A DNA stretch of 64,000 nt, taken from NCBI GenBank assembly GCA_023053575.1, contig JAKZAP010000008.1, positions 1,265,001-1,329,000 of the forward strand, given 5' to 3'. The notes beneath the pieces are model-generated. The model was not told where the DNA came from. It saw only the letters and a list, made by a program, of their open reading frames with translations, and did not search any database. Shown here piece after piece: positions 1,862 through 58,205 of the stretch. Position numbers and translations under genes: made by a program. Source of the stretch: Branchinecta lynchi. Lineage: Eukaryota > Arthropoda > Branchiopoda > Anostraca > Branchinectidae. Position 1 is the stretch's first letter, and every line of letters starts with the position of its first letter.

Positions 1862-1931
1862 TATCCTAACAATGTAATTTGTTTAGATTATCCACTTTGT
1901 TCGTAGTCCCGCATTCGCTATCTCGTACATG

Positions 1932-2006
1932 GACTCATGGCTCAGTTGGTAGAGCGTTGGACTTGTAACTCAGAGGTTCCTGGTTCGCTCCCGCACTCGG
2001 GCAGCC
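1932..2006 (+). tRNA. tRNA-Thr(UGU)-like sequence, probably pseudogene or SINE head
   Basis: The segment holds a good A box (TGGCTCAGTTGG) and B box (GGTTCGCTCC), with anticodon-loop-like CTTGTAA giving TGT. The 3' part ACTCGGGCA should pair with a 5' GCCCGAGT, but the 5' strand reads GGACTCA, so the acceptor stem does not form. The anticodon stem also has a mismatch. A run of eight T just downstream (from about 2007) would terminate RNA polymerase III. This fits a decayed tRNA or tRNA-derived SINE head better than a working tRNA gene. Confidence 0.35.
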
Positions 2007-2805: not shown

Positions 2806-4240
2806 GATTTTTGGGATCCCAAAACGTAAGTGGAGGGATACCTATGACATCGCAAAAGTTGTCCGTCTGTCCGTCCGTCCGTCCGTCTGTAAGCACGATA
2901 ACTCTCGAAGGGAATGAGATATTTTGATGAAACTTGGTGTGAAAGTTCGTTGGGTCGTCGGACCAGTCAAGTTCGTAGACGGGCTTTGTAGCTTTACATT
3001 TAGGGGTGGGGGAGGGGATTCAAATTAAGGGACAAACAAAATGTTTTGAAACAGCTAATGTGATAGTCGATTATGGGGTAAGAAGACATGCTGAACACGA
3101 TGGTGAAAACCATTTTGTCATCGGACAAGTATTTCGCCCGGAATCCGGCCAAAACCGGAAAGTTTGTTGAAAGTAAAAGTTTTATTTGAAGTTGATTAGA
3201 TGTTCGATTTAGGGGTAGGAAGACATGCTGAAGACGATGGTGAAAATTATTTTCTCGACGGACAAGTATTTCGCCCGGAATCCGGCCCAAACCAGAAAGT
3301 TTGTTGAAAGTAAAAGTTTTATTTGAAATTGATTAGATGTTCGATTTAGGGGTAGGAAGACATGCTGAAGACGATGGTGAGAACTATTTTCTCGACGGAC
3401 AAGTATTTCGCCCGGAATCCGGCCCAAACCAGAAAGTTAGTTGAAAGTAAAAGTTTTATTTGAAGTTGATTAGATGTTCGATTTAGAGGTAAGAAGACAT
3501 GCTGAAGACGATGGTGAAAACTATTTTCTCGACGGACAAGTATTTCGACCGGAATCCTGCCCAAACCGGTAAGTTTGTCAAAATTAAAAGTTTTATTTGG
3601 AGTTGATTAGATGTTCGATTTAGGGCAAGAAGACATGCTGAACACTTATGTGAAAACGAGTTTCTACCCGGACATGTATAGTTCGTCCGGAATCCGGCCA
3701 AAACCGGAAAACTGTTGGAAGTCAAAGTTTTATTTCTAGTTGATTAGATAAGCGATTTAGGGGTAAGAAGAGATGCTGAGTCCCTGTATGACAATCATAT
3801 TTTACCCGGACATATAGTTCGACCGGAATCCGGCTGGAATCGGAAAATTTGTTATAAGCTAAATTTCTATTTGAAGTTGATTAGATGTTCATTACTGGGG
3901 AAAGAAGATACCCTGATTTCGTGTTTGAGCTTTCTTTTTTCGCCGGACAAGTAGTTCTGGAGTTCGGCCGGAACCGGGAAATTAGCAGAAGTGGCAGGAA
4001 GTTTTCGTCAAAACAGATATGATAGGGGTAAACACACATGCTGAATCCAAATCTGAACTTGGTTTTCTCAGGTGATTAGCTATTTTGCCTTAATCTGTTT
4101 CTGAATTTTAATTGTAAAAATGTTCAAGGAGTCTGGCGAAGACTGGATCTGGCTAAGACAAGACCCTGTTGTCTGGATCAGATATTGAATTTTTGGGATC
4201 CCATCGAAACCTTTGGTCTTGTTTCCTTTTGCTGAAGGGC
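2806..4240 (-). mobile_element. TGGGATCCCA-family element, copy 1, with 137-bp minisatellite
   Basis: The left end has TTGGGATCCCAAAACG followed by the GTCCGTCTGTCC-rich segment. The right end has GGGATCCCATCGAAACC and closes with GGTCTTGT. In between are repeated units containing CCGGAATCCGGCC and TAGGGGTAAGAAGACATGCTG. It abuts an inverted second copy at 4255. Boundaries are taken from the intact copies at 19172-19990 and 34858-35926. Confidence 0.65.
3060..3900. repeat. Tandem array of ~137-bp units
   Basis: The block containing CGGAATCCGGCC, AGTAAAAGTTTTATTTGAAG and AGACATGCTGAAGACGATGG recurs at 137-bp spacing across 3100-3720 and then decays. Because the minus strand of each unit has no stop codon, overlapping short open frames appear here. 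They are a by-product of the repeat, not genes. Related units fill the centres of the other TGGGATCCCA elements. Confidence 0.85.
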
Positions 4241-10825: not shown

Positions 10826-11083
10826 TTTATTCAAACAATGTTTACAACGGGTACGTCAGCTACGATTCTTCATCAGCGATATTTCGGCCCTTTTTGGCAA
10901 GGGTCCTCGTCAGGCTGTCAATCCTCTGGTTCAACTTCGGGGAAGGAAACCTGATTACAGCCTGACGAGGACCCTTGCCAAAAAGGGCAGAAATATCGCT
11001 GATGGAGAATCGTAGCTGACGTACCCGTTGTAAACATTGTTTGAATAAATGTTTCAAAGTCAGCTTGGGCTCAAAGAATATTT
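10826..11083 (+). mobile_element. Foldback retroposon carrying two inverted hammerhead-like motifs
   Basis: Two arms in inverse orientation flank a ~40-bp loop. The minus-strand core at 10874-10917 reads CAGC CTGACGA, stem II, GAAA, UAUC, GCUG with every invariant base present. The plus-strand core at 10958-11001 differs only at the base before GAAA. The right end has the extension CAGCTTGGGCTCAAAGAATA. The flanks AATCCTGTATG (10815-10825) and AATCTTGTATG (11084-11094) form an 11-bp TSD with one mismatch. No protein is encoded. Confidence 0.8.
10874..10917 (-). ncRNA. Hammerhead-ribozyme-like motif, intact core
   Basis: The CTGACGA box is at 10907-10913 and GAAA at 10882-10885. Stem II pairs GG.CCCTT with AAGGG.CC. 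Stem I pairs CAGC with GCTG immediately after a UC cleavage-type site. Stem III is minimal, as in Penelope-type hammerheads. Activity is inferred from the motif only. Confidence 0.6.
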
Positions 11084-12659: not shown

Positions 12660-12776
12660 GAGTATTCAAACAATGTTTACAACGGATACGTCAGCTATGA
12701 TTCTTCATTAGCAATATTTCGACCCTTCTTGGCAAGGGTCCTCGTCAGGCTGTCAAGCTTCTGGGTCAACGTCGGG
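12660..12776 (-). mobile_element. Hammerhead-motif repeat, single arm
   Basis: Only one arm is present, starting TATTCAAACAATGTTTACAA. The core at 12709-12752 keeps CTGACGA and GAAA, but the cleavage-site region reads UAUU followed by GCUA, which weakens stem I. It is truncated in the loop, where it meets the inverted repeat that starts at 12777. Confidence 0.65.
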
Positions 12777-14399
12777 GAAAAGAGTCGGGAAAGCCTTGGT
12801 ATCAGTATTTCTAAAAAAAAATCAAATGGTAGCTCTGGCCGAAACTGGCGTGTTTAATATTCAAGCATAAATAGTAAAAATGTCAAAATAGGTACTGCAT
12901 ACCGACTATTATAATCCAATTGCGGGACAGCTTTTCAGATAGCGAGCAGTCTTGTCTTTTATTTGTTGAATGACTAGACAATCCCGGAAACAGGTTACCT
13001 GGATTCCTCTCAGTTCTAATTTTCGTTAGGATGTTTTTGCCACGTGCAAATTGCATGCATGGTTATGAAGCATTGGCAAACTAGTCCCGAGGCCCTTAAA
13101 TTTTTATATTTATTTTTTTTTGTTAAGGAATTCGAGTATTGTTGTATTCAAGTATTTATTTACGTACTAAAATTATATAACACTGGACAACATGGTCTAT
13201 TGGCGTAGAAGGAAAAGAATCTTGTGTAGGCCTACACAAGATTAGGTTTGTGGCACCATCGTAGGGGGAGAGGAATCCGGAATGTTGAGGCATGGCTTCG
13301 TCTTTGGACGATAGGACAAGCAGTTGAGTTTGACCCCCCCCCCAGAAATGGCCGTCAAACAATATGACCCATAAAAAGTGGGTCCAGCTTGTTTGGAAAA
13401 GTTTACGGTGATTATGCTGCGAACAGACGATCAGGTTTTCCGGACGGATTTTTTACACCTCTATCATCAAGTAGAAATAATCTCAACTGTTCCGTGTAGA
13501 GAATCATGATGGTGTAAAAACGGATAGTAGCCACCCCCCCACCCTCTCCTCTCCTACTCCCCCCACAATCGTCCGATCCGGTCCGGAGGTGAAGTGGAAG
13601 ATCTGAAGCATGTGCTATTTCCTATTGAATTTGATGCGTTATTCTCAGCCGTTTAAGTTGTGTTTTATCATTAAGTTTTTGTTTTGGATAGTTAGTGGTG
13701 ATTCAGGTTGAAAATGAGTTGTTGTTTTTTGGTTGATTTTCTGGTTGGGCGTCCCAGACCGCGTAAGTCAAGCTCTTTTCTTTCTTTCTTTCCCCTTTTT
13801 TCCTTTGTCTTTGTTTTGTCGAAGTTTTGTTTTTATTAATGTTTTGTTTCGAGGGTAATTAGTCCCTTACAGGTTCGCCTCTGGGCATTGAAGATTCCAT
13901 TTTTTTTTTAATAAACCCTTCATTCATTCATTCAAGTTTCATTCAGATCGGATCACCCGTTCGAAAGTTACGCATGCCTCAACATTCCGGATTCCCCTCC
14001 CCCTCCTCGCCCTACGATGGTGCCACAACAAGACTCGAATTCCTTAACAATAAAAACAAAACAAAACTTTACGGGCCCCGGGACTAGTTTGCCAATGCTT
14101 CATAACCATGCATACAATTTGCACCTGGCAAAAACATCCTAACGAAAATTAGAACTGAGAGGAATCCAGGTAACCTGTTTCCGGGGATAATTCTAGTCAT
14201 TCAACAAATAAAAGACAAGACTGGTCGCTATACCAAAAGCTGTCCCGCAATTGGATTATAATAGTCGGTATGTAGTACCTATTTTGAAATTTTGACTTTT
14301 TACACTTGAATATTCAAGACGCCAGTTTTGGCCAGAGGCCACCATTTGATTTTTTCTTTTTTTCAAATAGTGATACCAAGGCTTCCTCGACTCTTTTCT
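12777..14399. repeat. 1.6-kb inverted repeat (foldback)
   Basis: The left arm begins AAAAGAGTCGGGAAAGCCTTGG and the right arm ends with the inverse (CCAAGGCTTCCTCGACTCTTTT). The arms match over about 350 bp (12777-13140 versus 14030-14399), including the GGAATCCAGGTAACCTG and AATCCAATTGCGGGACAGC blocks. The inner parts share the GAGGCATG/TTCCGGATTCCCC text of the GGCACTTG family. The centre holds a LINE tail. Confidence 0.75.
13620..13935 (+). mobile_element. LINE 3' UTR and tail
   Basis: A pyrimidine-rich 3' UTR-like segment ends AATAAACCCTTCATTCATTC at about 13910-13932, a simple-repeat tail of the type left by target-primed reverse transcription. No coding frame survives. It sits in the centre of the inverted repeat. 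Confidence 0.5.
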
Positions 14400-22991: not shown

Positions 22992-23756
22992 GTAAGTCAG
23001 GAAGAAGAAGAACAAAAAAGAATTAGCTGTACAAAGCTGACAAAATGGATCAACTACTGATATCCAACCTTCTTATCTTCTTATATTTTCCTTTCTTTGT
23101 TGGCCTTTCATTGCTTAGAATTTGGAATGTTAGCGGAATTGTCAGTTGTCTTTTTGAATGTGTTATGTTTGCCGCCGAAAACACTGAGCGAATCGCCGTA
23201 CTCTCCAGTTTCTTCTTGAAAATTCAGCATCAAATTTAGCATTCTTGCTGAATTTTCCGATGAACTTTTTGCTGAATTAATGCTGCATTAATTGAGCGAA
23301 AATTTAAGTCCGAAAGCGGAAAACTGCATAAAATCCTGAATTAATTCAGCATTCACACAAACGTCTTTGGCAAGTATTCTACAGCAAAAATTGCCCGGTA
23401 TGGGTTTTAGTGAAATCTTCGACGACTGTTCAAAATTAGGCGACGTTCAAATAGGCAAACCTTTACTCTACAAACGGGACACACATTTATCACCATAGTC
23501 ATGATTGGAGCATGGTTTCACTGAAAAGTGGAGAAGAATTCTGGTAGGGCGGGGGGGGGGGGGGGGGCAATACCCAGATTGCGTAGAGGGCAATACGCGA
23601 ACCAAAAGAACGGACAAAAATTTAGGGTTGAACACCTTTAAAACCATAGAGATTCTAGACTAAGTAAGTAAGTAACTTATTTATAATCGAGTAATGAAAG
23701 AAAATAAGTAAGACACATTAACACACAGAAAAAGACACTTAATTTCAATCTTCGGA

Positions 23757-23918
23757 CAGGAATCTTGCAGTATTTGCTACTGGGATTAATCTTGTCTCTA
23801 AAAAGATAATCTTATCTCTAATTCGGATTAAAGCTATCTCAGTATAAATAAGGTTAATCCCAGTAGCAAATACTGCAGTTAACTTTAATCCTTACTCGGA
23901 GAAACTTTTCACAGTGTG
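23757..23918. mobile_element. Palindromic CACTGTAAAAAG MITE, copy 2
   Basis: It contains CTTGCAGTATTTGCTACTGG at the left and the inverse GTAGCAAATACTGCAG, then CTCGGAGAAACTTTTCACAG at the right. The internal palindrome is the same as at 20117-20275. The left terminal CACTGT is missing or degraded. Confidence 0.65.
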
Positions 23919-24284: not shown

Positions 24285-24965
24285 CAAATAATGTATACAA
24301 CGGATACATCATATTTGATGGATACATCAGGTACGATGCTTCATTAGCAAAGATATTTTTTTTTTTAGTAGTAGTAGATTTTTAATTCTAAAAAGTAACT
24401 TTCACAGCGTGAACGCCGAATTTGACTTCTACGTCCAAACATAACTAAACACTCTAATCAATTTGTCAGTCGAATAATAATTGCAACATAATTCGTAACA
24501 AATTCATCAGTCGATACAAAACTTAACTACCACAATTTACACGATAGGCTCATTCGGCGAACATTTTGCCAAAAACTTCTAAAACAAATAAAAGTCACTT
24601 TAAAAAAATGGTAAAGTTTTTTTTTTTCAAATTCAATCAAAGTAAATTTTTAATCATTACGTCAAAAGTAATTTCACTTAAAAATATATATAAAACAAAA
24701 TAAAACATTCTAAAAGGGTCAAAAACCAAAACTAACAAATTCAACAAAAATAATGACTAAGTTTACTGGCTGTTGTACAATTCAACAAAACTTGGAACAA
24801 AACTCCTTCGGTACCTTTCATGTTTTGTGGGGACTGGATTTAATCAATTAAATCGACCCTTTTCGACCCTTCTTGGCAGGGTCCTCGTCAGGCTGTCAAT
24901 CTTCAAGAATGAAGATGCTGATGAACCATCGTAGCTGACGGATCTGTTGTATACATTATTTGAAA
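24285..24965 (-). mobile_element. Hammerhead-motif repeat split by an AT-rich insertion
   Basis: The left part (24285-24350) has TCAAATAATGTATACAACGG and the right part (24861-24965) has the minus-strand CTGACGAGGACCCTGCCAAG core and GAAA, then a shortened second arm. The insertion starts with a T-run and ends near AATCGACCC, exactly beside the GAAA box. It is an A-tailed minus-strand insertion of about 500 bp whose start (ACTTTCACAGCGTGAACGCC) resembles the LINE 3' end at 7870. Confidence 0.6.
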
Positions 24966-25384: not shown

Positions 25385-26830
25385 GAAAACGGGCCATACT
25401 CATAGCCCCGCCCACTACGCTTGCGGCATTTAAAGGGGGATAAACTTGCAGGTTTATAAGTTTCTAGTAATGCAAAGGTTCGGTCTACACACACCAAGGA
25501 AAAAATGGAGGCTGTATCATTTTTGTTTTGCTGATTCCAGAGTATGAAGTTTTAGGAGCCAGCGTTGATGAACGACTGAATGAGTTTCAGTGGGGACGTT
25601 CTCTATAACTAGTGGTGCTAGTATCTCTGCCATTCGAGTGTGTGTCAATTTTGTCAAGTCTTGGCCCTACTCCCTGGTGTTATTTGCTCTGCACTGGACT
25701 GAACTCTACAACTTCCAATCGCATCAAAATAAAAGAAAACTCGAAGCGGACAACACTCAAATTGAGTACTTACTCATCAGATGGCGTTCTGTCCGACCAG
25801 GCTTGCTTCGGCTCCACAATCCCGCTGGACTGAACTCTACCGCTTCCAATCGCATCATGGGGTTTGAGTGACGCTCCGTTGGAAGAACGAGGCGAGGCAC
25901 GGAAGGACGGACTAAAGAGGGCAGGAAACTTCCGTCTGATATCATCACCGATGCTCGAACCAGCAGGAACTGTTTGTCTATGAGCTGCTCCATGTCTAGA
26001 AATAATTGCCGGTCAGTTCAATCCAGAACAAAATAACATAGCGTCAAGACCAGAGCAAAACATGTTTTGCTCTCCATGCTTTGCAAACGAGCCATTCTCG
26101 TAGTGCCGCCCACTACGCTTGCGACATTTAAAGCGAGACAAACTTGTGGGTTTAGCAGTTTCTAGTAAAGAAAAGGTGCGGTCTGCACACCCCAAGGAAT
26201 CAATGGAGGCTGTATCATTTTTTGCAATGTTCAGAATACGAAGTTATCGGAGCCAGCGCTGGTGAACGACTGAATGCGTTTTAGTAGAGATGTTAAAATA
26301 TTCCTTCAGCCCAAGCTGACTGCGAATCATACTTGACGGTGCAAAACGGATAAGTCAGCTACATTTTATTAAAGCTATATTCCGGTCCTTCTTGGCAAGG
26401 GTACTCTTCAGGCTCAAGCCGCTCAAGGCCCCGAAGAAGGGCCAAAATATAGCTCTAATAAAATGTAGCTGACTTATCCGTTTTGCAACGTCAAATAGAG
26501 ATGTTCTCTATCGCTAGTGGTGCTAGTATCGCTGCTACTCGAGCGTCTGTCAATTTCGACAAGTCTTGGCACTACTCCCTTATAGTGTTATGTTGCTCTG
26601 AGACGTAGGCATTCCTTCTTTCGCAAACGGGCCATACTTATACCTCCGCCCACTACGCTTGCGACATTTAAAGCTAGACAAACTTGTGGGTTTAGAAATT
26701 GCTAAGATAGCTAAGATGCGGTCTGCACACGTTGAGGAAACTGGGGAGATTGTGTGTTATTTTTGCTTTGTTCAGAATATGAAGTTGTTGGAGCCAGCGC
26801 TGGTGCACGACCAATTGAGTTTAGAAATAG
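25385..26830 (+). repeat. Three diverged copies of a ~250-bp segment
   Basis: The block CCGCCCACTACGCTTGCG, then TTTAAAG, AAACTTG, GGTCTACACAC/GGTCTGCACAC and GGAGCCAGCG occurs at 25391-25640, 26088-26294 (continued at 26506-26600) and 26628-26830. The middle copy is interrupted by a ribozyme-like element. The first copy preserves the empty site. No coding function is evident. CCGCCCACTACG and TTTAAAG in each unit could hint at promoter-derived sequence, but that is only a guess. Confidence 0.7.
26295..26495 (-). mobile_element. Hammerhead-motif retroposon, subtype 2, with 10-bp TSD
   Basis: TAGAGATGTT flanks both ends (26285-26294 and 26496-26505). The arms carry GGTGCAAAACGGATAAGTCA and its inverse. 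The minus-strand motif at 26371-26415 keeps CTGAAGA, with stem I GAGC/GCTT, but GAAA is changed to GGAA. The plus-strand arm has lost its CTGANGA box. Confidence 0.8.
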
Positions 26831-34857: not shown

Positions 34858-35926
34858 TCTTTATTGGGATCCCAAAACGTAAGTGGAGGGATACCTATGA
34901 CATCGCAAAAGTTGTCCGTCTGTCCGCACGATAACTCTCGAAGGGATTGAGAAATTTTGATGAAACTTGGCGGGAGGATCCTATGGGTCAAAGTACAGGT
35001 CAAGTTCGAAGATGGGCTCTGTAGCCCTATATGTAAGGGTGGGGAAGGGGTTTCAAATTAAGGGGCGAAAAAAATATTTTTTTAAAGCTATTGAGATAGT
35101 TGATTTAGGGGTAAGGAGACATGCTGAATTCGAATATGAAATTTATTTTCTCGCCGGACAAATAGTTCACCCGGAATCCGGCAAAAAACGGAAAAATTGG
35201 GAAAAGTAAAAGTTTAATATGAAGTTGGTTAGATGTTCGATTTAGGGACAAGGAGACGTGCTGAGTCCGAATATGAAATTTATTTTCTCGCCGGACAATT
35301 ATTTCGACCGGAATCCGGCCAAAACTGGAGAATTTGTTAAAAGTAAAACTTTTATTTAAATTTGATAAGATGTTCGATTTGCGGGTAAGAAGACATGCTG
35401 AATTCGCATATGACAATCATTTTGTCACCGGATGTATAGATCGCTCGGAATCCGGCTGCAACCGGAAAATTTGTTAAAAGTAAAAGTTTAATCTGAAGTT
35501 GATTAGAGGTTGGGGGTAGGGGTAAGGAGACATGCTGAATTCGTTTTTGAGCTTTAGTTTTTTGCCAGACAAGTAGTTTGTCCGGAATCCGGCCGAAACC
35601 TGAAGTTGGGGCAGAAGTAAGGAAGGAATGAGATACGACGTAGGCTATAGGGTAAACCATATGCTGAATCCATATTTCAATATTTGACAGCGCAAAACGG
35701 ATATCTGAATACATCTGAACTTGTTGAAATCCAGCTGGCGTATCCGGTCTGCACTGTCAAATAAGAACTTGGTCTTCTCCGATTATTACCATCGGCCTTA
35801 GCCGGTTTTTAAATATTAAAAGTAAAAATGCTTAAGAAGTCTGTTGAAGACCGAAAATCTACAAGACCGAATTGTCGGCAGCAAATATTAAAATTTTTGG
35901 GATCCCACCGAAACCTTTGGTCTTGT
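34858..35926 (-). mobile_element. TGGGATCCCA-family element, complete copy with 8-bp TSD
   Basis: TTGAACTG flanks both ends (34850-34857 and 35927-35934). The left end is TCTTTATTGGGATCCCAAAA and the right end closes GGTCTTGT, the inverse of the ACAAGACC start at 19172. The interior has 137-bp-type units (CCGGAATCCGGCCAAAACTG, GTAAGAAGACATGCTG). A small ribozyme-family remnant (CGTATCCGGTCTGCACTGTC) is lodged near 35690-35760. Confidence 0.85.
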
Positions 35927-38280: not shown

Positions 38281-38458
38281 ATTACAAACCTGTATGTTTG
38301 TTTCCTTCCCCGAAGTTGAACCAGAGGATTGACAGCCTGACGAGGACCCTTGCCAAGAAGGGCCAAAATATCGCTGATGAATAATCGTAGCTGACGTATC
38401 CGTTGTAAACATTGTTTGAATAAATGTTTAAAAGTCAGCTTGGGCTCAGAGAATATTT
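38281..38458 (+). mobile_element. Hammerhead-motif retroposon with 14-bp TSD
   Basis: AAGATCAAAGGTTT (38267-38280) and AAGACCAAAGGTTT (38459-38472) are a 14-bp duplication with one mismatch, lying in the ends of the TGGGATCCCA element. The plus-strand motif at 38333-38376 has CAGC, CTGACGA, full stem II and UAUC/GCUG, but GAAA is AAAA. Confidence 0.75.
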
Positions 38459-39727
38459 AAGACCAAAGGTTTCGATGGGATCCCAAAAATTCAATATTTG
38501 ATCCAGACAATTGGGTCTTGTCTAGGCCAGATCCAGTTTTCGCCAGACTCCTTGAACATTTTTACTATTAAAATTCAGATACAGATTTAGGCCAAAAAAC
38601 AAATCATCTGATTTGTTCAGATATGGATTCAACATGTTTGTCTTTACCCCTAGAAGTCATATCTGTTTTGACGAAAATCTCCTGCCTTACTTCTACGAAT
38701 TTCCCTGTTTCGGCCGAATTCCGTAACTACCTGTCGGGCAAAAAAAAGAGGCTAAAATCGAACTCAGCGTCTCGCTCAGCGTTTCTTCTTTCCCCTATAT
38801 CGAACATCTAATCAACTTCAAATTAAAATTTAACTTAAAACATGTTTTCCGGTTCCAGCCAGATTCCAGCCGAAATATATGTCCGGGTACAAAATGACTG
38901 TCATACACGGATTCAGCATCTCTTCTTACCCCTAAATCGGATATGTAATCAACTACAAATACTTTTAACAATTTTCCGGTTTTGGCCGGATTCCGAGCGA
39001 ACTACTTGCCCGGCGAGAAAATGATTTTCACCATCGTGTTCAGCATGTCTTCCTACCCGTAAACCGAACATATAATTAACTTCAAATAAAACTTTTACTT
39101 TTAACAGATTTTCCGGTTTTGGCCGGATTCCGGGCTAACTACTTGTCGGGCGAAAAAATGGTTTTCACCACCGTCTTCAGCATGTCTTCTTACCCCTAAA
39201 TCAAACATCCAATCAACTTCAAATAAAACTTTTACTTTTAACAAACTTTCCGGTTTTGGCCGGATTCCGGGTGAACTACATGTCCGGCGAGAAAATGGTT
39301 TCCACCATCGTGTTCAGCATTTCTTCTTACTCCACAATCGACTGTCCCATTAGCTGTTTAAAAATATTTTGCTTGCCCCTTGATTTAAACCCCCGACCCC
39401 ACTCCTAAATATAGGGCTACAAAGCCCATCTACGAACTCGACCTTACTCTTGACCCAAAGAATCCTCACACCAAGTTTCATCAAAATAGCTCATTCCCTT
39501 CGAGAGTTATCGTGCTTACAGTCGGACGGACAACTTTTGCGATGTCATAAGTATCCAAAGCCCACCTTCGAACCTGACCTGTACTTTGACCCAAAGGATC
39601 TTCCCAACAAGTTTCATCAAAATATCTCAAACCCTTCAAGAGTTATCGTGCGGACAGACCGACAGACAGACGGACAACTTTTCCGATGTCATAGGTATCC
39701 CTCCACTTACGTTTTGGGACCCCAACA
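38459..39727 (+). mobile_element. TGGGATCCCA-family element, long copy
   Basis: It begins AAGACCAAAGGTTTCGATGG and ends GTTTTGGGACCCCAACAAG. The interior holds about five 137-bp-type units in the opposite sense to copy 1 (TTTTGGCCGGATTCCGGG, CAGCATGTCTTCTTACC) and a duplicated GACGGACAACTTTTGCGATG block near 39520 and 39670. Confidence 0.7.
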
Positions 39728-43208: not shown

Positions 43209-43790
43209 TGTTACGGTGGTGCCATCTGCACCCCGTACTGCTAACTTCTCCCGCCGTTAGGCAGCGTTACTCCCTTCCCGTCCAGTTTGTTTAATCCTTT
43301 ATATTGTCGTGACTCTGTACTATTTTATTAACTTTATGTTGATGACTCATCCGAGAGCATGAATCATCTTCTTCACACTTCTTTTCCGGGTCCTGACCGG
43401 GAACAATCCTTTTGACCTAAAGGTTGCTTATTGTGTAAGTAAGTTCATACCACAGAATAAAACCTTTTGTTTATTTTACGGACCATAGGTCATTATTATG
43501 AGTCTTGGTTAAAGCTCCTTAGAGTGGGCTGGCCTATCGGGCCTAGTGTATGATGGGTGGTTTATAGCCTATTGTGGTTCGGTACGCAAACCTTAGTGTG
43601 AATCGATCGCGGGAATCCACAATGAACCCGTGAAGTCTGCTCGTGTAGTAGGCCACCAGACGCCCTAGGTTGTCCTGACTCCGATGACTGTATATAAGGA
43701 CATTTACGATCTCTGTCCGGCCTATTACACCCCTCGCCATAACATCAGGTTGAGAGTGCTTCTTCACATACAAATACAGTCGTCGTAACA
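43209..43790. mobile_element. Solo LTR (582 bp) with 4-bp TSD
   Basis: The ends TGTTACG and CGTAACA are exact inverses bounded by TG and CA. AGGG flanks both sides (43205-43208 and 43791-43794). It contains AATAAAACC (near 43456, plus strand) and a TATATAAGG (near 43690). No internal coding region is present, as expected after recombination between two LTRs. A 4-bp TSD fits Ty3/Gypsy, and possibly other LTR groups. Confidence 0.85.
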
Positions 43791-43865
43791 AGGGTCCTCG
43801 TCAGGCTGTCAATCTTCAGGGTCAGCGTCGGGGAAGGAAGTAAAACCAGTAATAATGAAGATTGA

Positions 43866-43909
43866 CAGCCTGACGAGGACCAATGCCAAGAAGGGCCGAA
43901 ATATCGCTG
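43866..43909 (+). ncRNA. Hammerhead-ribozyme-like motif, intact core
   Basis: CAGC (43866-43869), CTGACGA (43870-43876), a stem II arm weakened by CCAAT in place of CCCTT, CC, GAAA, then TATC and GCTG. All catalytic-box bases are present. Stem I is 4 bp and stem III is minimal. Confidence 0.55.
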
Positions 43910-43944
43910 ATGAAGCATCGTAGCTGACGTCTCTGTTGTATATT

Positions 43945-50255: not shown

Positions 50256-53200
50256 ACAAGAGCTGTAAGCTCATATGGCACTTGCAAGCATATGTAGTAG
50301 GTAAGGTAACAGCTAAGATCTGTGCTGTGTTGAGGCACACGATTATGGACCTTTAGAATTCATAAAAATGTGTGGTTTAGTAAGAATCATGCAATAGGTT
50401 ACAATGGGCAATGTAAATTGGCTAGGAATCCATTTTGCAAGCAAACGCACTGGTACACACATGATCATGGGCCCGTGGGTCGTGAAAGTACATCTTTCGC
50501 TCGAAAGTAGTATTTTTTTTTCCATTTTGTGCTAAGATGCGCACTTTAAGGGCATCGAACTGAATTTAGAAGTAAAATACTTGGGGCACAGACGGTCATG
50601 GGCCCTTGGGGATCTTAAAAATGTTTAGTTTCTTAAGAATATTTTTTCCACTTTGCGGTAACATTGGTGCTTTAAGTATGCTGGAAACTCATTTTTAAGC
50701 GAAACCCTTGAGGCAAAATTATCACAGGTCCTTGGGTATCACGAAAATGGATCTTTTGGTAAAAATGTCTTGTTTCACTTTGCAGTTAGATACGCACTTT
50801 TAAGAAGGCCGAAAACTCATTTCATATACTTTAGGTGCAAACGATCATGGGCTCTGGGGGATTATGAACGTGTTCGTGAAATCAGAAACACGTCCTTTAG
50901 TCAGCTGTCAAGTTTCCTCCCTATCCGACCAACCGTTCAAAAGTTATGCAGGAAATTTCTGGTAGTCCGGCTTCCAGTTCCCTCCACTCCTCGGATCGCG
51001 GAAATTACTGATTATAAGTCAATCTGATCGGGTCCCCAGTACACCTGCCAAATTCCAGCGTCCAAGTTCATCTGTAATTACCTTAATTCGCGATCACCGG
51101 ATTTCCGGACAACCCCTTCCAAGACCCCCACAGTGCGCCGATCCGGTTCATTTCTGTCAGAATGTATTTACAACTTGTCCTTGTTCTTCTCACCAAGCTT
51201 CGTCCCCGTCCCTCTACTCTAAGCTTGTTCCAATATTTCCAATCCCCCTCTAATCCTCCCCCTCCCCCTGAGTTATCAGATACCGTCCGGACACGAAATG
51301 GTAATCCTCGACAAGGTCTTTCCAACTGTCGAGTTTCATTTGTATCCGATGCCCCCTTCGAAAGTTATGCTTGCCTCAAGATCCCAGATTTCCCCCGATT
51401 TCAAGGTCGTGGAAATGACTTTTCTTAAGTCAATATGGTCGGGTCCCTGATAAGTCTGCCAAGCTTCATCGTCCTAGCACATCTGGAAGTACCTTAACCC
51501 GTGGTAACCGGAAATCCGGGACCCAGCCTCCACCACCGCCCCACACAGTGCCCGGATCCGCTCCGGTTTTGTCAACAATGTTACAACGATATGTGCTTGT
51601 TCTTCCCACCAAGTTTCATCCCGATCCCTCCACTCTAAGCGTGTCACGATATTTTCGATCCCCTCCCCCCCCCCAACTCCCCCAACAGTTGTTCGAAAGT
51701 TCGAGCGTCCCTCAATATTCGGGATTCCCCTTCCCTCCACTCCCACCACGGTGGTCGGATCGGGGAAGTGACTATTTCCAAGTTAGTTTGGTCGGGTCCC
51801 TAATATGTCTGCCAAGATTCATCGTCCTTGCACACCTGGAAGTACCCTAACTCGAGAAGAGTGAACAGACCGACATGGCACTTGAGCAACGCATGCGTTT
51901 CGTCGGACCAGTTAGCATTTTTCATCGCATCGCACACTACGACAAAAAGCAACGTTTTGCATTGCATGTTGCAGGAGTCGTGTCGTGTCGCATAACGCAA
52001 AATTTTGGGCAAAATCGCAGCTGTGTGAGGGGTGGGAAGAACAATAGAGAAGTTTTCGGATAGGCTTTTCCCTTCCTTGCCTTCCGACCAAGTCCCCCTA
52101 TGTATTGCGTAGGTCGGTCGGTCGGTCCGTCTGTCGGTCCGGTGATCGCGAGTTAGGGTACTTCCAGATGTGCTAGGATGGTGAAACCTGGCAGGCTAGG
52201 AGGGAAGAACAAGCAGATATCCTTGATACACCTTTGACATACGGATCGGATCCAGGCACTGTGGGGGGGGGCGGCTGGATCTCGCGGATTTCCGGTTATC
52301 ACGGGTTAAAGTAGCCTACTTCGAGATGTGCTAGAATGACGAAGCTTGGCAGACATATCAAGGACCCGACCAAACTGACTTGAAAATAGTCACTTCCCAT
52401 ATTTGACCATCGTTGGGAGTGGAGGGAGGGGGAATCCGGAATATTGAGGCATGCATAACTTTCGAAATGGTGACAGGATCTGAATGAAACTTGATATATG
52501 GAAAGAACACATACCTTACATTTCCCATTTTACGTCCAGACCGGATCCGACAACTATAGGGGGGAGCTGGAGGGGGTTCTGGAAATATCATGACACGGTT
52601 AGAGTGGAGGGGTCGGGATGAAACTTGGTGGGGAGAACAAGCACATATCCTTAATAGATCTGACATAACCGGATCGGATCCGGGCACTGTGGGAGGGGGG
52701 TGGAGGCTGGATCCCTGATTTCCGGTTATCACGGGTTAAGGTGCTTCGAGATGTGCTGATGTACCCGACCAAACTGACTTGGAAATAGTCATTTCCCCGA
52801 TTCGACCATCGTGGGGGGAGTGGAGGGAGGGAAAATCTGGGATATTGAGGCAAGCTCAACTTTCGAACGGGGCATCGGACACAAGCGAAACTTGACAGCT
52901 GGAAAGAGCTCGTGTCTCTATTATACCATTTCGTGTCCGGACCGGAGCCGATAACTCTGGAGGTGGGGGTTGAAGGGAGATCGGAAATCTCGGAACAGGC
53001 TTAGAGTGGAGGGGTCGGGATAAAGCTTGGTGAGAAGAACAAGGACAAGTCATAAATACATTTTTAACAGAAATGGTCCGGATCGGCGAACTGCGGGGGT
53101 CTTGGAAGGGGTTTTCCGGAGATCCGGTGATCGCGAGTTAAGGTACTTACAGATGCACTTGGACGATGAAATTCGGCTGGTGTACTGGAGACCCGATCAA

Positions 53201-54373
53201 ATTGACTTGGAAGCAGTCAGTTCCCAAATGCGACAAGCTCCGGGGGAGGGGAGGGAACTGGAATGCGGACTAGCAGAATTTCATGCGTAACTTTTGAACG
53301 GTTGGTCGGGTCCAAGGAAATGTAGCTGTTGACAAAATAAGGTGTTTCTAATCTCACGAACACGTTCATAAGCCTCCAAGGGCTCATGATCATTTGTACC
53401 TCAAGTATATGAATTTTAGCCCCCTTAAAGGCACAGAAAACTTGACTACGCAACTTTCGGCCATCAAATCAACCTGGGAGGCTTAGATAAAGATACAGGG
53501 ACTTATTGTCGACAGGACCCCCCTTATTTGTTATCTCGAACCCCCTCCTTAGTGTTCCCAAAGCTAGCTGGCAGGCCCTTGCCCCTTCTGCACTGGGATT
53601 ATGCACTTATGCACTGTAAAAGTACGCCTTTGACCGTGTTTCGGCCATAGTATCGGGGTAGTAGTCAAGAGGTCGCGCGTTCGATTCCTACTCCCGGCAC
53701 ACAAACCTTTTGCTTTTTTTTCTACTAACTCAAAAATCGAAATCTCGGAAACTGACCGGAAACTGCAATGGTCGTAACGAGAATTTTTCTTACTCTCAAT
53801 ATCGACTCAGGGTACATTCTTGATATGTCAGCTAGCTCCCCGAGTCAAGTTTGTGTCAAGTTTTCTGTTCCTTTAAAGTGCGTAGCTGAACTGCAAAGTG
53901 AAAAAACTTTTCACCAAAAGATCCATTTCGTGATTCCGAAGGGCCCGAGATAATTTTTCCTCAAGGGATTTGCTTACAAATGAATTTCCAACATACTTGA
54001 AGCACCAATGTTACCACAAAGTTGAGAACAAATTCTCAAGAAACTAACAAATTTTGAGATCCCCAAGGGCCCAAGATCATCTGTGCCCCCAAGCATTTTG
54101 CTTCCAAATTCCGTCTAAACCCCTTAAAGTGCGCATCTTAGCCACAAAATGCAAAAAAATAATACTTTCGAGCGAATGATATACTTTCGTGACCCAAGAG
54201 CCCATGATCATTTGTGTACCAGTGTATTTGCTTACAAAACGGACTCCTAGCCCACTTAAATTGCGCATTGTAACCGCAACGGCATACTTTTTCTAAACCA
54301 TACATTTTCATGAATCCCAAAAGGTCCATAATCATCTGTGCCTCAACACCGCATGAATCTTAGCTGTTATACC

Positions 54374-54623
54374 CAAATATTCTTTGAGCCCAAGCTGACT
54401 TTGAAACATTTATTCAAACAATGTTTACAACGGATACGTCAGCTATGATTTTACATCAGCGATATTTCGGCCCTTCTTGGCAAGGGTCCTCGTCAGGTTG
54501 TCAATCCTCTGGATCAACTTCGGGGAAGGAAACAAACCTGTAATAAATAACTGAAGCTTCGACCGACTAATATCGCTGATGAAAAATCATAGCTGACGTA
54601 TCCGTTGTAAACATTTTTTTGAA
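54374..54623 (-). mobile_element. Hammerhead-motif foldback retroposon with 13-bp TSD
   Basis: TAGCTGTTATACC flanks it on both sides (54361-54373 and 54624-54636), and the empty site (GGTAACAGCTA, near 50310) survives in the opposite palindrome arm. It starts CAAATATTCTTTGAGCCC. The minus-strand motif at 54457-54500 has intact CTGACGA, GAAA and UAUC/GCUG, with one mismatch in stem I. The second arm has lost its core. Confidence 0.85.
54457..54500 (-). ncRNA. Hammerhead-ribozyme-like motif in sense with the gene
   Basis: Stem II GG.CCCTT/AAGGG.CC is perfect apart from the usual bulged A, and the two catalytic boxes are intact. Stem I pairs CAAC with GCTG (one mismatch). It lies on the same strand as the PTPN4-like transcript, inside the intron between exons 2 and 4. 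Confidence 0.55.
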
Positions 54624-54686
54624 TAGCTGTTATACCATTACCTACTGTGTGTGTTTGCAAGTGCCATATGAGCTTACACCTCTTGT

Positions 54687-56536: not shown

Positions 56537-57416
56537 CAAGACCAAAGGTTTCGATGGGATCCCAAAAATTCAATATCTGATCCAGACAACAGGGTCTTGT
56601 CTTAGCCAGATCCAGTCTTCGCCAGACTCCTTGAACATTTTTACAATTAAAATTCAGAAACAGATTAAGGCCAAATAGCTAATCACCTGAGAAAACCAAG
56701 TTCAGATTTGGATTCAGCATGTGTGTTTACCCCTATAAGTCATATCTGTTTTGACGAAAACTTCCTGCCACTTCTGCCAATTTCCCGGTTCCGGCCGAAC
56801 TCCAAAACTACTTGTCCGGCAAAAAAAAAAAGCTCAAAGACGAAATCAGGGTATCTTCTTTCCCCAGTAATGAACATCTAATCAACTTCAAATAGAAATT
56901 TAGCTTATAACAAATTTTCCGATTCCAGCCGGGTTCCGGTCGAACTATATGTCCGGGTAAAATATGATTGTCATACGGGGACTCAGCATCTCGTCTTACC
57001 CCTAAATCGCTTATCTAATCAACTAGAAATAAAACCTTGACTTCCAACAGATTTCCGGTTTTAGCCGGATTCCTGACGAACTACATGTCCGGGTAGAAAA
57101 TTGTTTTCAGATAAGTGTTCAGCATGTCTTCTTGCCCTAAATCGAACATCTAATCAACTCCAAATAAAACTTTTACTTTCAACAAACTTTCCGGTTTGGG
57201 CCGGATTCCGGGCGAAATACTTTTCCGTCGAGAAAATAGTTTTCACCATCGTCTTCAACATGTCTTCCTACCCCTAAATCGAACATCTAATCAATTTCAA
57301 ATAAAACTTTTACTTTCAACAAACTTTCCGGTTTGGGCCGGATTCCGGGCAAAATACTTGTCCGTCGAGAAAATAATTTTCAGCATCGTCTTCAGCATGT
57401 CTTCCTACCCCTACAA
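56537..57416 (+). mobile_element. TGGGATCCCA-family element, 3'-truncated
   Basis: It starts ACAAGACCAAAGGTTTCGAT and GGGATCCCAAAAATTC, followed by decayed units and then two to three good 137-bp units (57190-57410). A LINE fragment replaces the far end at 57417. Confidence 0.7.
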
Positions 57417-58205
57417 AGCTCATTGTTCAGCAAAGGTCACCAAAACTAGCCATACTAGCCCCCACAGTATTCGCGCTCAATAAGCTTCTTCAAGTGTGTG
57501 ATGAATTTGCGAAAGCAAATGATATTCTTTTCAACACGAAAAAGACAGTTTGTATGGCGTTTATCCCGAAAAGTCTTCAACTACGTTACATCCCCGATGT
57601 TATTTTGTCTGGTGAGGTACTAGTTTTTGTGCAAACTTTCAAGTATTTGGGCTTTACTTTTATTCCTTCTATGTCTGATGAGCCTCACGTTGCTGCGCTC
57701 TCCAGATCACTGTCTGTGAGGGCCAATATACTAATTCGGAGGTTTGGTAGATGCGAGGCTTCTGTTAAGACCTTCTTTTCAGAGCTTACTGCACTCCGCT
57801 GTACTGTTTGTCACTGGTGTGTAACATGAGAGTTAAGTATCTAGATACATTTCGGGTTTTATATAACAACTCTTTCCGGTGGCTACACGGACTTGCATGG
57901 AAATGTAGTGCGTCTGGCATGTTTGTGGGTGAGGGCCTTCCTTCTTTCGGGGAACTTCGGCGTCGGGCTATCTTTTCTCTCCAGACCCGAATTCTTCGCT
58001 CTCGAAACCCCATGCTCGTGGTTCTTTCGAGTCCCCATATGAGACTGACGTTGCCTGTGTGGTTAGTCTGTAACCGCGAACTTTACACGTGTTGCGTAGA
58101 AGGCTCGCAATCTTAAATGTATTTTGTTGTTGTTTTTATGTGTTGTATGTGTAATGGCTCTAGAAGCCGTAGTCGAAGTCAAATAAATTAATAAATAAAT
58201 AAAAC
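57417..58205 (+). mobile_element. CR1/L2-like LINE 3' half, 5'-truncated
   Basis: The frame reads VCDEFAKANDILFNTKKTVC, then FKYLGFTFIPSMSDE, ANILIRRFGRC and, after a frameshift near 57825, FRVLYNNSFRWLHGL and GEGLPSFGELRRRAIFSLQT. These are the palm-end, YLG and C-terminal motifs of CR1/L2-type reverse transcriptases. Stop near 58114; a 3' UTR and an AAATAAATAAATAA tail follow at 58183-58203. It sits in intron 1 of the PTPN4-like gene, opposite in sense. Confidence 0.85.

What the first reader, a model, noticed from the sequence alone, without database searches (positions are those of the whole stretch)
54361..54636. Hammerhead-ribozyme-like foldback retroposon with a 13-bp TSD and a preserved empty site
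The element (54374-54623) is flanked by an exact 13-bp repeat, and the matching place in the other arm of the surrounding palindrome (near 50310) lacks it. It carries an intact CTGANGA / stem II / GAAA / UC-GCTG core. At least ten relatives occur in the window, most as two inverted arms. Hammerheads with minimal stem III are known from Penelope-like elements and retrozymes. A short, non-coding, inverted-arm version with 10-14-bp TSDs looks like a distinct non-autonomous family and is the strongest candidate here for an undescribed system.
Basis: partly seen in the sequence, partly recalled or inferred. Interest (0 to 1): 0.92.

Follow-up and report, generated by a model that had tools for sequence, protein, structure and literature searches.

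The report
Truncated Penelope retrotransposon carrying hammerhead ribozyme
The short ribozyme-bearing foldback is a cut-short copy of a known kind of animal jumping gene (a Penelope-like element) rather than a new system, but its copies hold an unusually clear record of how such elements may paste an RNA into both edges of a staggered DNA break.

Summary
Element 54374-54623 has an exact 13-bp TSD, a diverged paralogous empty site near 50307, and a hammerhead core on the minus strand (4 cores in the window against 0.02 expected). Rfam finds no hammerhead; Penelope-like elements (PLEs) are reported to carry minimal hammerheads.

The family reading does not hold. The same genome carries coding PLE copies (RT and GIY-YIG) with the same ribozyme leader, ends and TSDs. 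The finding is a 5'-truncated PLE insertion.

Fetched copies suggest how it forms. Among head-to-head pairs with resolved ends, 30 independent ones have one arm ending at site A and the other about 35 nt earlier at site B; 1 is A/A, 0 B/B (plus L031 and L037+L055). Arms of one insertion share rare variants. Eight arm ends lie exactly at ATTACAGG with an extra G, 31 nt after a TATA-like motif, suggesting a capped RNA start; 1 of 54 lies at the cleavage site. This favours two-sided target-primed reverse transcription from uncleaved RNA.

Verdict: new member of a known kind, with useful mechanistic evidence.

The parts
54361..54373 (.). left copy of the 13-bp target-site duplication TAGCTGTTATACC
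54374..54569 (-). A arm: RNA-sense minus strand, positions -196 to -1 counted from the A end (...GAATATTTG)
   Evidence: 96.4% to the PLE reference taken from L031; A end shared with other copies
54374..54409 (-). 36-nt tail between the two inferred RT start sites; begins with ATG (MFQSQLGLKEYL, preceded by an in-frame TAA), taken as the start of the PLE ORF (inferred)
   Evidence: tail concept from PMC11167929
54447..54506 (-). type I hammerhead with minimal stem III: stem I 5' strand 54506-54497, CTGACGA 54496-54490, stem II 54489-54469, GAAA-TA-TC 54468-54461, predicted cleavage 54461|54460, stem I 3' strand 54460-54447
   Evidence: descriptor 4 found against 0.02 expected; fold of another copy gives stems I and II, the window copy itself only stem II; core mostly kept in distant copies
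54544..54544 (-). position -171, inferred PLE transcription start (first A of ATTACAGG); internal in this copy
   Evidence: 8 of 8 arms ending exactly here carry an extra G
54569..54623 (+). B arm: inverted copy, positions about -93 to -38, no tail
54624..54636 (.). right copy of the target-site duplication
50256..50509 (-). paralogous empty site in the other arm of the large palindrome, insertion point about 50304-50307
   Evidence: 82% to the joined flanks
10826..11083 (.). second two-armed A/B copy, TSD AATC(C/T)TGTATG; left arm passes the full descriptor, right arm has AGAAA for CGAAA
37607..37803 (.). older two-armed A/B copy, TSD GGATCTAA
43789..43940 (.). old two-armed copy with intact core at 43870 (+); outer ends not resolved
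26296..26482 (.). old two-armed copy (74-80%) of a diverged subfamily with A at positions N7 and H17; one outer end unresolved; overlaps a MIR8742-like hairpin
38296..38458 (+). A-arm copy, -163 to -1
12663..12779 (-). single B-type arm with core

Best explanation
The element is a short, 5'-truncated, non-coding insertion of an endonuclease-bearing Penelope-like retrotransposon resident in this genome. Proposed course: the PLE protein nicks both strands about 8-15 bp apart. At one nick reverse transcription starts on the PLE RNA at internal site A (36 nt past the inferred start of the ATG). At the other nick it starts at site B, about 35 nt upstream, on the same RNA or an RNA from the same locus. 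Both cDNAs run towards the RNA 5' end and their heads are joined, giving head-to-head arms with a tail on one arm and a TSD. In one class of short copies the long arm runs to the inferred capped 5' end of the RNA (-171), through an uncleaved hammerhead in the leader. SHOWN: partner, ends, TSDs, A/B pattern, shared variants, the -171/extra-G cluster. INFERRED: cap, two-sided priming, template identity, start codon. NOT TESTED: ribozyme activity.
For: Partner: an inverted-armed copy 0.5 Mb away (L031, arms 1.86 kb at 98.9%) carries a 473-aa frame with 169 homologues at E<=0.001 among 7466 candidates; of 3 scanned, 3 match RVT_1 (one just below its cut-off) and 1 GIY-YIG. L037+L055 is a second coding copy: A arm 1419 nt, B arm 205 nt, TSD GTCTTGAACGG. 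Ends: a sweep of the fetched sequence finds 38 head-to-head neighbours, 30 A/B, 1 A/A, 0 B/B, 7 with an end unresolved; with L031 and L037+L055, and duplicates removed, 30 independent A/B. TSDs: a match in 31 of 31 rows tested (29 independent, 8 with one mismatch), 27 of 31 above the null 99th percentile. Same source: arms differ at 2.0% of positions against 5.7% when partners are permuted, 0 of 5000 (26 insertions). Capped 5' end: 8 of 8 arms (7 insertions) ending exactly at -171 carry a G where the template has T; TATTTATA lies 31 nt upstream. Uncleaved template: 1 of 54 arm ends lies within 2 nt of the cleavage site. Ribozyme constraint: at H17, C58 T7 A6 G0 of 71 arms and A8 T4 C1 G0 of 13 distant copies (the two sets overlap). 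Literature: Anolis PLE cuts and extends both strands and starts RT at two internal sites that bound the tail (PMC11167929); inverted pLTRs, 8-10 bp TSDs and a one-sided 31-bp tail in Adineta (PMC3846280, passages).
Against: One A/A pair exists (L048 772-1196); its arms are of different subfamilies (78% and 93%) and show no clear TSD by eye, so it may be two copies side by side, but it was missing from my first hand-made list. Pfam and PDB searches with the L031 frames themselves gave 0 families and 0 chains; PLE identity rests on homologues and motifs. No full-length copy with its upstream pLTR-ORF junction was found, so the start codon is inferred. The copies came from one similarity search with this element as query (40 of 1139 candidates scored), which biases arm lengths and disfavours B/B. 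Of 13 arm ends at -173 to -166, L046 lacks the G; in L013 and L047 the G could belong to the other arm. Gene conversion between arms could mimic a shared template.
Confidence: 0.85

Rival explanations
1. A distinct non-autonomous foldback family: a short RNA with its own life cycle, mobilised in trans by a PLE.
For: Short copies outnumber coding ones in the sample, and a group of long arms shares one 5' end at -171.
Against: Short and long copies form a series up to coding copies. The common 5' end looks like a transcript start, which gives short copies without any dedicated short element. Copies ending at -171 or, as here, at -196 lack the TATA-like motif at -202.
Confidence: 0.1
2. Self-priming: a single cDNA folds back and copies itself, giving head-to-head arms (Arkhipova et al. 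2013 favoured self-priming, on an antisense template).
For: Arms of one insertion share rare variants (28 shared, 23 on one arm only), and the longer arm often carries extra sequence at the centre.
Against: A copy of the first cDNA should run out to site A and into the target. The second arm instead stops near B in 30 independent pairs against 1 A/A (plus L031 and L037+L055), beside a TSD in the 29 tested, which calls for a separate start. The -171/extra-G cluster points to a sense, capped template.
Confidence: 0.12
3. A metazoan non-LTR retrozyme (small circRNA with type I hammerhead, tandem genomic repeats).
For: Type I hammerhead, unit of about 170-250 nt, TSDs longer than 4 bp (compare PMC7229834, parts 1-3 of 6 read).
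Against: No tandem unit arrays seen: 25 of 29 neighbouring hammerhead pairs within 1500 nt are inverted, and the 4 direct ones have unequal spacings of 183-639 nt (some duplicates and short pieces). Stem III is minimal, and an arm end at the cleavage site was seen once in 54.
Confidence: 0.04
4. A MITE or other foldback DNA transposon that happens to contain a hammerhead-like motif.
For: Inverted arms and TSDs.
Against: The two ends differ (A against B) in all but one resolved pair, TSD length varies from 8 to 15, 5' truncation is variable, and the coding copies have an RT.
Confidence: 0.01

Closest known systems
Endonuclease-bearing Penelope-like elements (Pen2a of Adineta vaga; Poseidon PAc of Anolis carolinensis)
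   Same: RT plus GIY-YIG frame, head-to-head inverted pLTR arms, tail on one arm, TSDs around 10 bp; in PAc also a hammerhead and two internal RT start sites
   Different: Most sampled copies here are leader-only and non-coding; the hammerhead lies upstream of the inferred ATG (in Anolis the ORF begins at stem II); a transcript-start-like signature is visible at arm ends
Metazoan non-LTR retrozymes with type I hammerheads (PMC7229834)
   Same: short non-coding retroelement with type I hammerhead
   Different: no tandem unit arrays seen, minimal stem III, inverted arms
Hammerhead type I, Rfam family (number RF00163 recalled)
   Same: CUGANGA / stem II / GAAA / UH core
   Different: no Rfam match at gathering or E<=10; stem III reduced to about one pair

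Membership tests
Penelope-like element (EN-bearing) | RT and GIY-YIG endonuclease in one frame in copies of the family | tested here: met
   L031 frame with YVDD and IPCDCGKRYVGRT motifs; homologues with PF00078 and PF01541. Direct Pfam scan of the L031 frames gave 0 families.
Penelope-like element (EN-bearing) | the window copy itself encodes the protein | tested here: not met
   250 nt, truncated, non-coding: a truncated copy, not an autonomous PLE
Penelope-like element (EN-bearing) | pLTR arms in inverted head-to-head order with TSD | tested here: met
   31 of 31 rows tested show a TSD match (29 independent)
Penelope-like element (EN-bearing) | 30-40 nt tail on one arm only | tested here: met
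   30 independent A/B pairs, 1 A/A, 0 B/B among resolved pairs; 6 pairs unresolved
Penelope-like element (EN-bearing) | minimal hammerhead in the pLTR | tested here: met
   activity not tested
Hammerhead ribozyme, type I | conserved core with stems I and II | tested here: met
   4 motifs against 0.02 expected; H17 never G in 71 arms; stem I weakened in the window copy
Hammerhead ribozyme, type I | match to an Rfam covariance model | tested here: not met
   none at gathering or E<=10
Hammerhead ribozyme, type I | self-cleavage | not testable with these tools
   needs transcription in vitro
Metazoan non-LTR retrozyme | direct tandem repeats of one unit | tested here: not met
   25 of 29 neighbouring pairs inverted, no unit array in the fetched pieces
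Metazoan non-LTR retrozyme | circular RNA | not testable with these tools
   no RNA data
MITE / foldback DNA transposon | two equal terminal inverted repeats and fixed TSD length | tested here: not met
   ends differ (A/B), TSD 8-15 bp

The most novel reading that the evidence does not exclude
Inverted PLE copies are the product of paired target-primed reverse transcription from one capped, uncleaved sense RNA, with a near-strict division of labour: one strand starts at site A, the other at site B. The abundant short copies are leader-only products of the 5'-proximal start sites, so the leader hammerhead is not cut in the RNA used as template.
Probability: 0.52. Interest if true: 0.6.

Novelty: new member of a known kind. 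Interest (0 to 1): 0.42.

Why it matters
How PLEs make head-to-head inverted copies was left open in 2013 (self-priming on an antisense template was preferred, PMC3846280, Discussion). In 2024 a purified PLE protein was shown to cut and extend both strands in vitro (PMC11167929). This genome offers many young two-armed insertions that record the reaction base by base: which end each strand starts at, that both arms appear to come from one source, that the template looks like a capped sense RNA, and that it is rarely if ever the hammerhead-cleaved RNA. That makes the in vitro model testable on genome data from other PLE-rich animals.

Tried and rejected
Rfam at gathering and at E<=10 found no hammerhead; the MIR8742, WsnRNA46 and SNOR75 matches were below gathering score and I read them as hairpins of foldback repeats or chance. 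The Pfam GIY-YIG search of the genome found two weak places: L029 resembles host SLX1 (name recalled) with a PLE tail nearby, L030 was not resolved; neither is the partner. The idea that arms stop at the ribozyme cleavage site was tested and not borne out (1 of 54). B arms often end inside the hammerhead (16 of 27, against 0 of 27 A arms, at -125 to -84), but the query favoured long A arms, so I draw no conclusion. Folding z-scores are weak (-1.26 and -1.42; 19 and 17 shuffles fold as well), and the window copy folds differently outside stem II. A genome-wide pattern count did not complete. PMC12910113 (passages) held nothing on the point.

Rows dropped before counts. The TSD list was picked by hand and leaves out the A/A pair in L048 (772-1196), the A/B pair in L053 whose flank is cut off, window copies at 24861-24964, 26296-26482 and 43789-43940, and pairs in L020 and L032 with an unresolved end; later swept all of these. 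L023, L043 and L044 share flank and TSD and count once. L039 has an extra 54-nt A-type piece; its outer A end was used from then on. L048's TSD length is an artefact of the piece's edge; by eye it is AATAGTTATAT. One search uses 26 and one search uses 27 of the 29 independent insertions. After I changed '29 of 29' to the counts above, corrected 15 to 16 B arms, and lowered the novel case from 0.55 to 0.52 because of the A/A pair.

Full report
OBSERVATION. The 13-bp repeat TAGCTGTTATACC flanks 54374-54623 exactly. The joined flanks match the other arm of a large palindrome at 50509-50256 with 82% identity and no element; the site is a diverged paralogous empty site, 3 nt shorter. The palindrome arms (53859-54369 against 50817-50307) are 82% alike, while the element is 96% like the PLE reference, so it probably inserted after the arms diverged (inference). 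The hammerhead core is on the minus strand with cleavage predicted at 54461|54460. A descriptor (core, two closing pairs of stem II, at least 3 of 4 stem I pairs) finds 4 motifs in the window against 0.02 expected from first-order Markov sequences. This copy has an A-C mismatch in stem I.

WHAT IT IS. The window lies in an unnamed assembly of 576 Mb in 216 contigs. The first search scored 40 of 1139 candidates. I fetched all 40 places with flanks (the window), six stretches again with longer flanks. Nearly all share one outer end...AAAGAATATTT(G), and run upstream to various points. The trailing G is often present in the target too, so it can be read as target DNA. The longest copies are coding: L031 holds a 4.2-kb head-to-head insertion with 1.86-kb arms at 98.9% and a 473-aa frame carrying YVDD and a GIY-YIG-like IPCDCGKRYVGRT. 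This frame has 169 homologues at E<=0.001 among 7466 candidates; of three scanned, three match RVT_1 (one just below the curated cut-off) and one GIY-YIG. Direct Pfam and PDB searches with the L031 frames found nothing. L037+L055, L042, L032 and L033 carry parts of the same frame at 83-98%. The finding is therefore a truncated copy of a Penelope-like element (PLE).

ANATOMY. Positions are counted back from the A end in RNA sense. TATTTATA is at -202, ATTACAGG at -171, CTGACGA at -123, the predicted cleavage at -88|-87, and an ATG preceded by an in-frame TAA at -36 (MFQSQLGLKEYL). Site B lies about -35. The window copy's long arm begins at -196, so it lacks the TATA-like motif.

TWO ARMS, ONE TAIL. 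A sweep of the fetched sequence for head-to-head neighbours gave 38 pairs: 30 A/B, 1 A/A, 0 B/B and 7 with an unresolved end. One of the 7 is L037+L055, whose A end lies in the neighbouring piece; L031 is A/B too but its arms are too far apart for the sweep. Counting the three copies of one insertion once, this makes 30 independent A/B pairs. The A/A pair (L048 772-1196) joins arms of 78% and 93% identity from different subfamilies, without a clear TSD by eye, and may be two copies side by side. B/B pairs would be disfavoured by the query. A TSD search over 31 hand-picked rows (29 independent) found a match in all 31, 8-15 bp long apart from one edge artefact, 8 with one mismatch; 27 of 31 exceed the 99th percentile of shuffled flank pairs. 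The two arms differ at 23 of 1129 compared positions (2.0%); permuting partners gives 5.7% on average, and 0 of 5000 permutations reach the observed value (26 insertions). For 19 of 26 B arms the closest A arm, ties allowed, is its partner. Minority alleles are shared by both arms 28 times and lie on one arm only 23 times. Both arms thus seem to come from one RNA or one source locus, unless gene conversion has made them alike.

WHERE ARMS STOP. In 54 arms of 27 insertions, 13 ends fall at -173 to -166 and 8 (7 insertions) exactly at -171. All 8 carry a G next to ATTACAGG where the template has T. Of the 13, 12 are preceded by G; L046 is not. The sequences beyond the G differ between copies. 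A G added at a capped RNA end, 31 nt after a TATA-like motif, is the simplest reading; in L013 and L047 the G may belong to the other arm. Only 1 of 54 ends lies within 2 nt of the cleavage site. The reverse transcriptase seems to have copied uncleaved RNA, in agreement with the in vitro work on Anolis (PMC11167929, parts 1 and 2 of 4 read).

RIBOZYME CONSTRAINT. In 71 arms, the position that must not be G in a hammerhead (H17; rule and numbering recalled) is C58 T7 A6 G0, and the free N7 is C65 A5 G1. Summed by hand, the 11 fixed core positions depart from the majority in 18 of 781 cells (2.3%), positions -84 to -78 in 86 of 497 (17%). In 13 distant copies N7 is A8 C5 and H17 is A8 T4 C1. U4, G5, A6, A9, A14 and A15.1 are 13 of 13; C3, G8, G12 and U16.1 are 11 of 13 and A13 10 of 13. 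A block just downstream, -71 to -58, is kept about as well (36 of 994, 3.6%), so the constraint is not on the ribozyme alone. Homology of distant copies is densest over -120 to -70 and thin upstream of -130 (31 distant matches). The absence of an Rfam match fits PLE hammerheads described as usually lacking helix III (PMC6155905, passages).

MECHANISM. The best account is paired target-primed reverse transcription: one nick starts at A, the other at B, both on PLE RNA from one source, and the heads are joined. Self-priming of one cDNA would be expected to carry the second arm out to A and into the target, which is not the usual pattern. Arkhipova et al. 2013 described the inverted pLTRs, the one-sided 31-bp tail and the TSDs, and left the mechanism open (PMC3846280, passages and Discussion). 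Frangieh et al. 2024 showed both-strand cutting and two internal starts in vitro. I saw no paper reporting a cap signature at PLE arm ends in the listings of searches; these cover open-licence papers only.

ABUNDANCE. Short matches (25-71 nt, E<=0.01) to the leader occur in 4 of 8 arbitrary 5-kb stretches; no shuffled control was run, and the matches are old or weak. A genome-wide count could not be obtained.

NOVELTY. New member of a known kind; the value lies in the mechanistic record.

Noticed in passing
window 3067-3890, 35094-35604, 38960-39330, 56872-57413: A 137-bp tandem repeat with similar units at four places; by eye the PLE insertion in L051 lies in similar sequence.
   Followed up: no
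window 50256-54686: Large imperfect palindrome (82% in the part beside the element) that holds the element in one arm.
   Followed up: partly
window 1931-1992: tRNA-like stretch below Rfam gathering score (22.1 bits), possibly a tRNA-derived SINE.
   Followed up: no
window 26327-26502: MIR8742-like hairpin (49.5 bits, E 8.9e-8, below gathering) overlaps a two-armed PLE copy; some annotated microRNA hairpins may be PLE foldbacks.
   Followed up: no
window 23739-23907: Long hairpin matching Rfam WsnRNA46 weakly (35.9 bits against 65.3 needed), probably a foldback repeat.
   Followed up: no
window 57377-57829: 150-aa frame that looks like part of a LINE-type reverse transcriptase (by eye).
   Followed up: no
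L036 3374-4507 (RNA-sense orientation): Two 567-bp tandem copies at 99.8%, each with one PLE leader copy: a recent tandem duplication.
   Followed up: partly
L048 1788-2014: About 227 nt of other sequence between the two arms of one insertion, both arms ending at -171 with an extra G.
   Followed up: no
L048 772-1196: The one A/A head-to-head pair: arms of two different subfamilies side by side, no clear TSD by eye.
   Followed up: partly
L029 669-869: PLE tail-like fragment (SQLGLKEYL) beside a GIY-YIG frame resembling host SLX1.
   Followed up: partly
window 41029, 26296; L038 388; L045 435; L048 453; L054 589; L061 3424: A second PLE subfamily matching mainly over -125 to -55 (hammerhead plus TAGCTGAC.TATCCG), mostly with A at both N7 and H17; the second block may be a protein-binding site.
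   Followed up: partly
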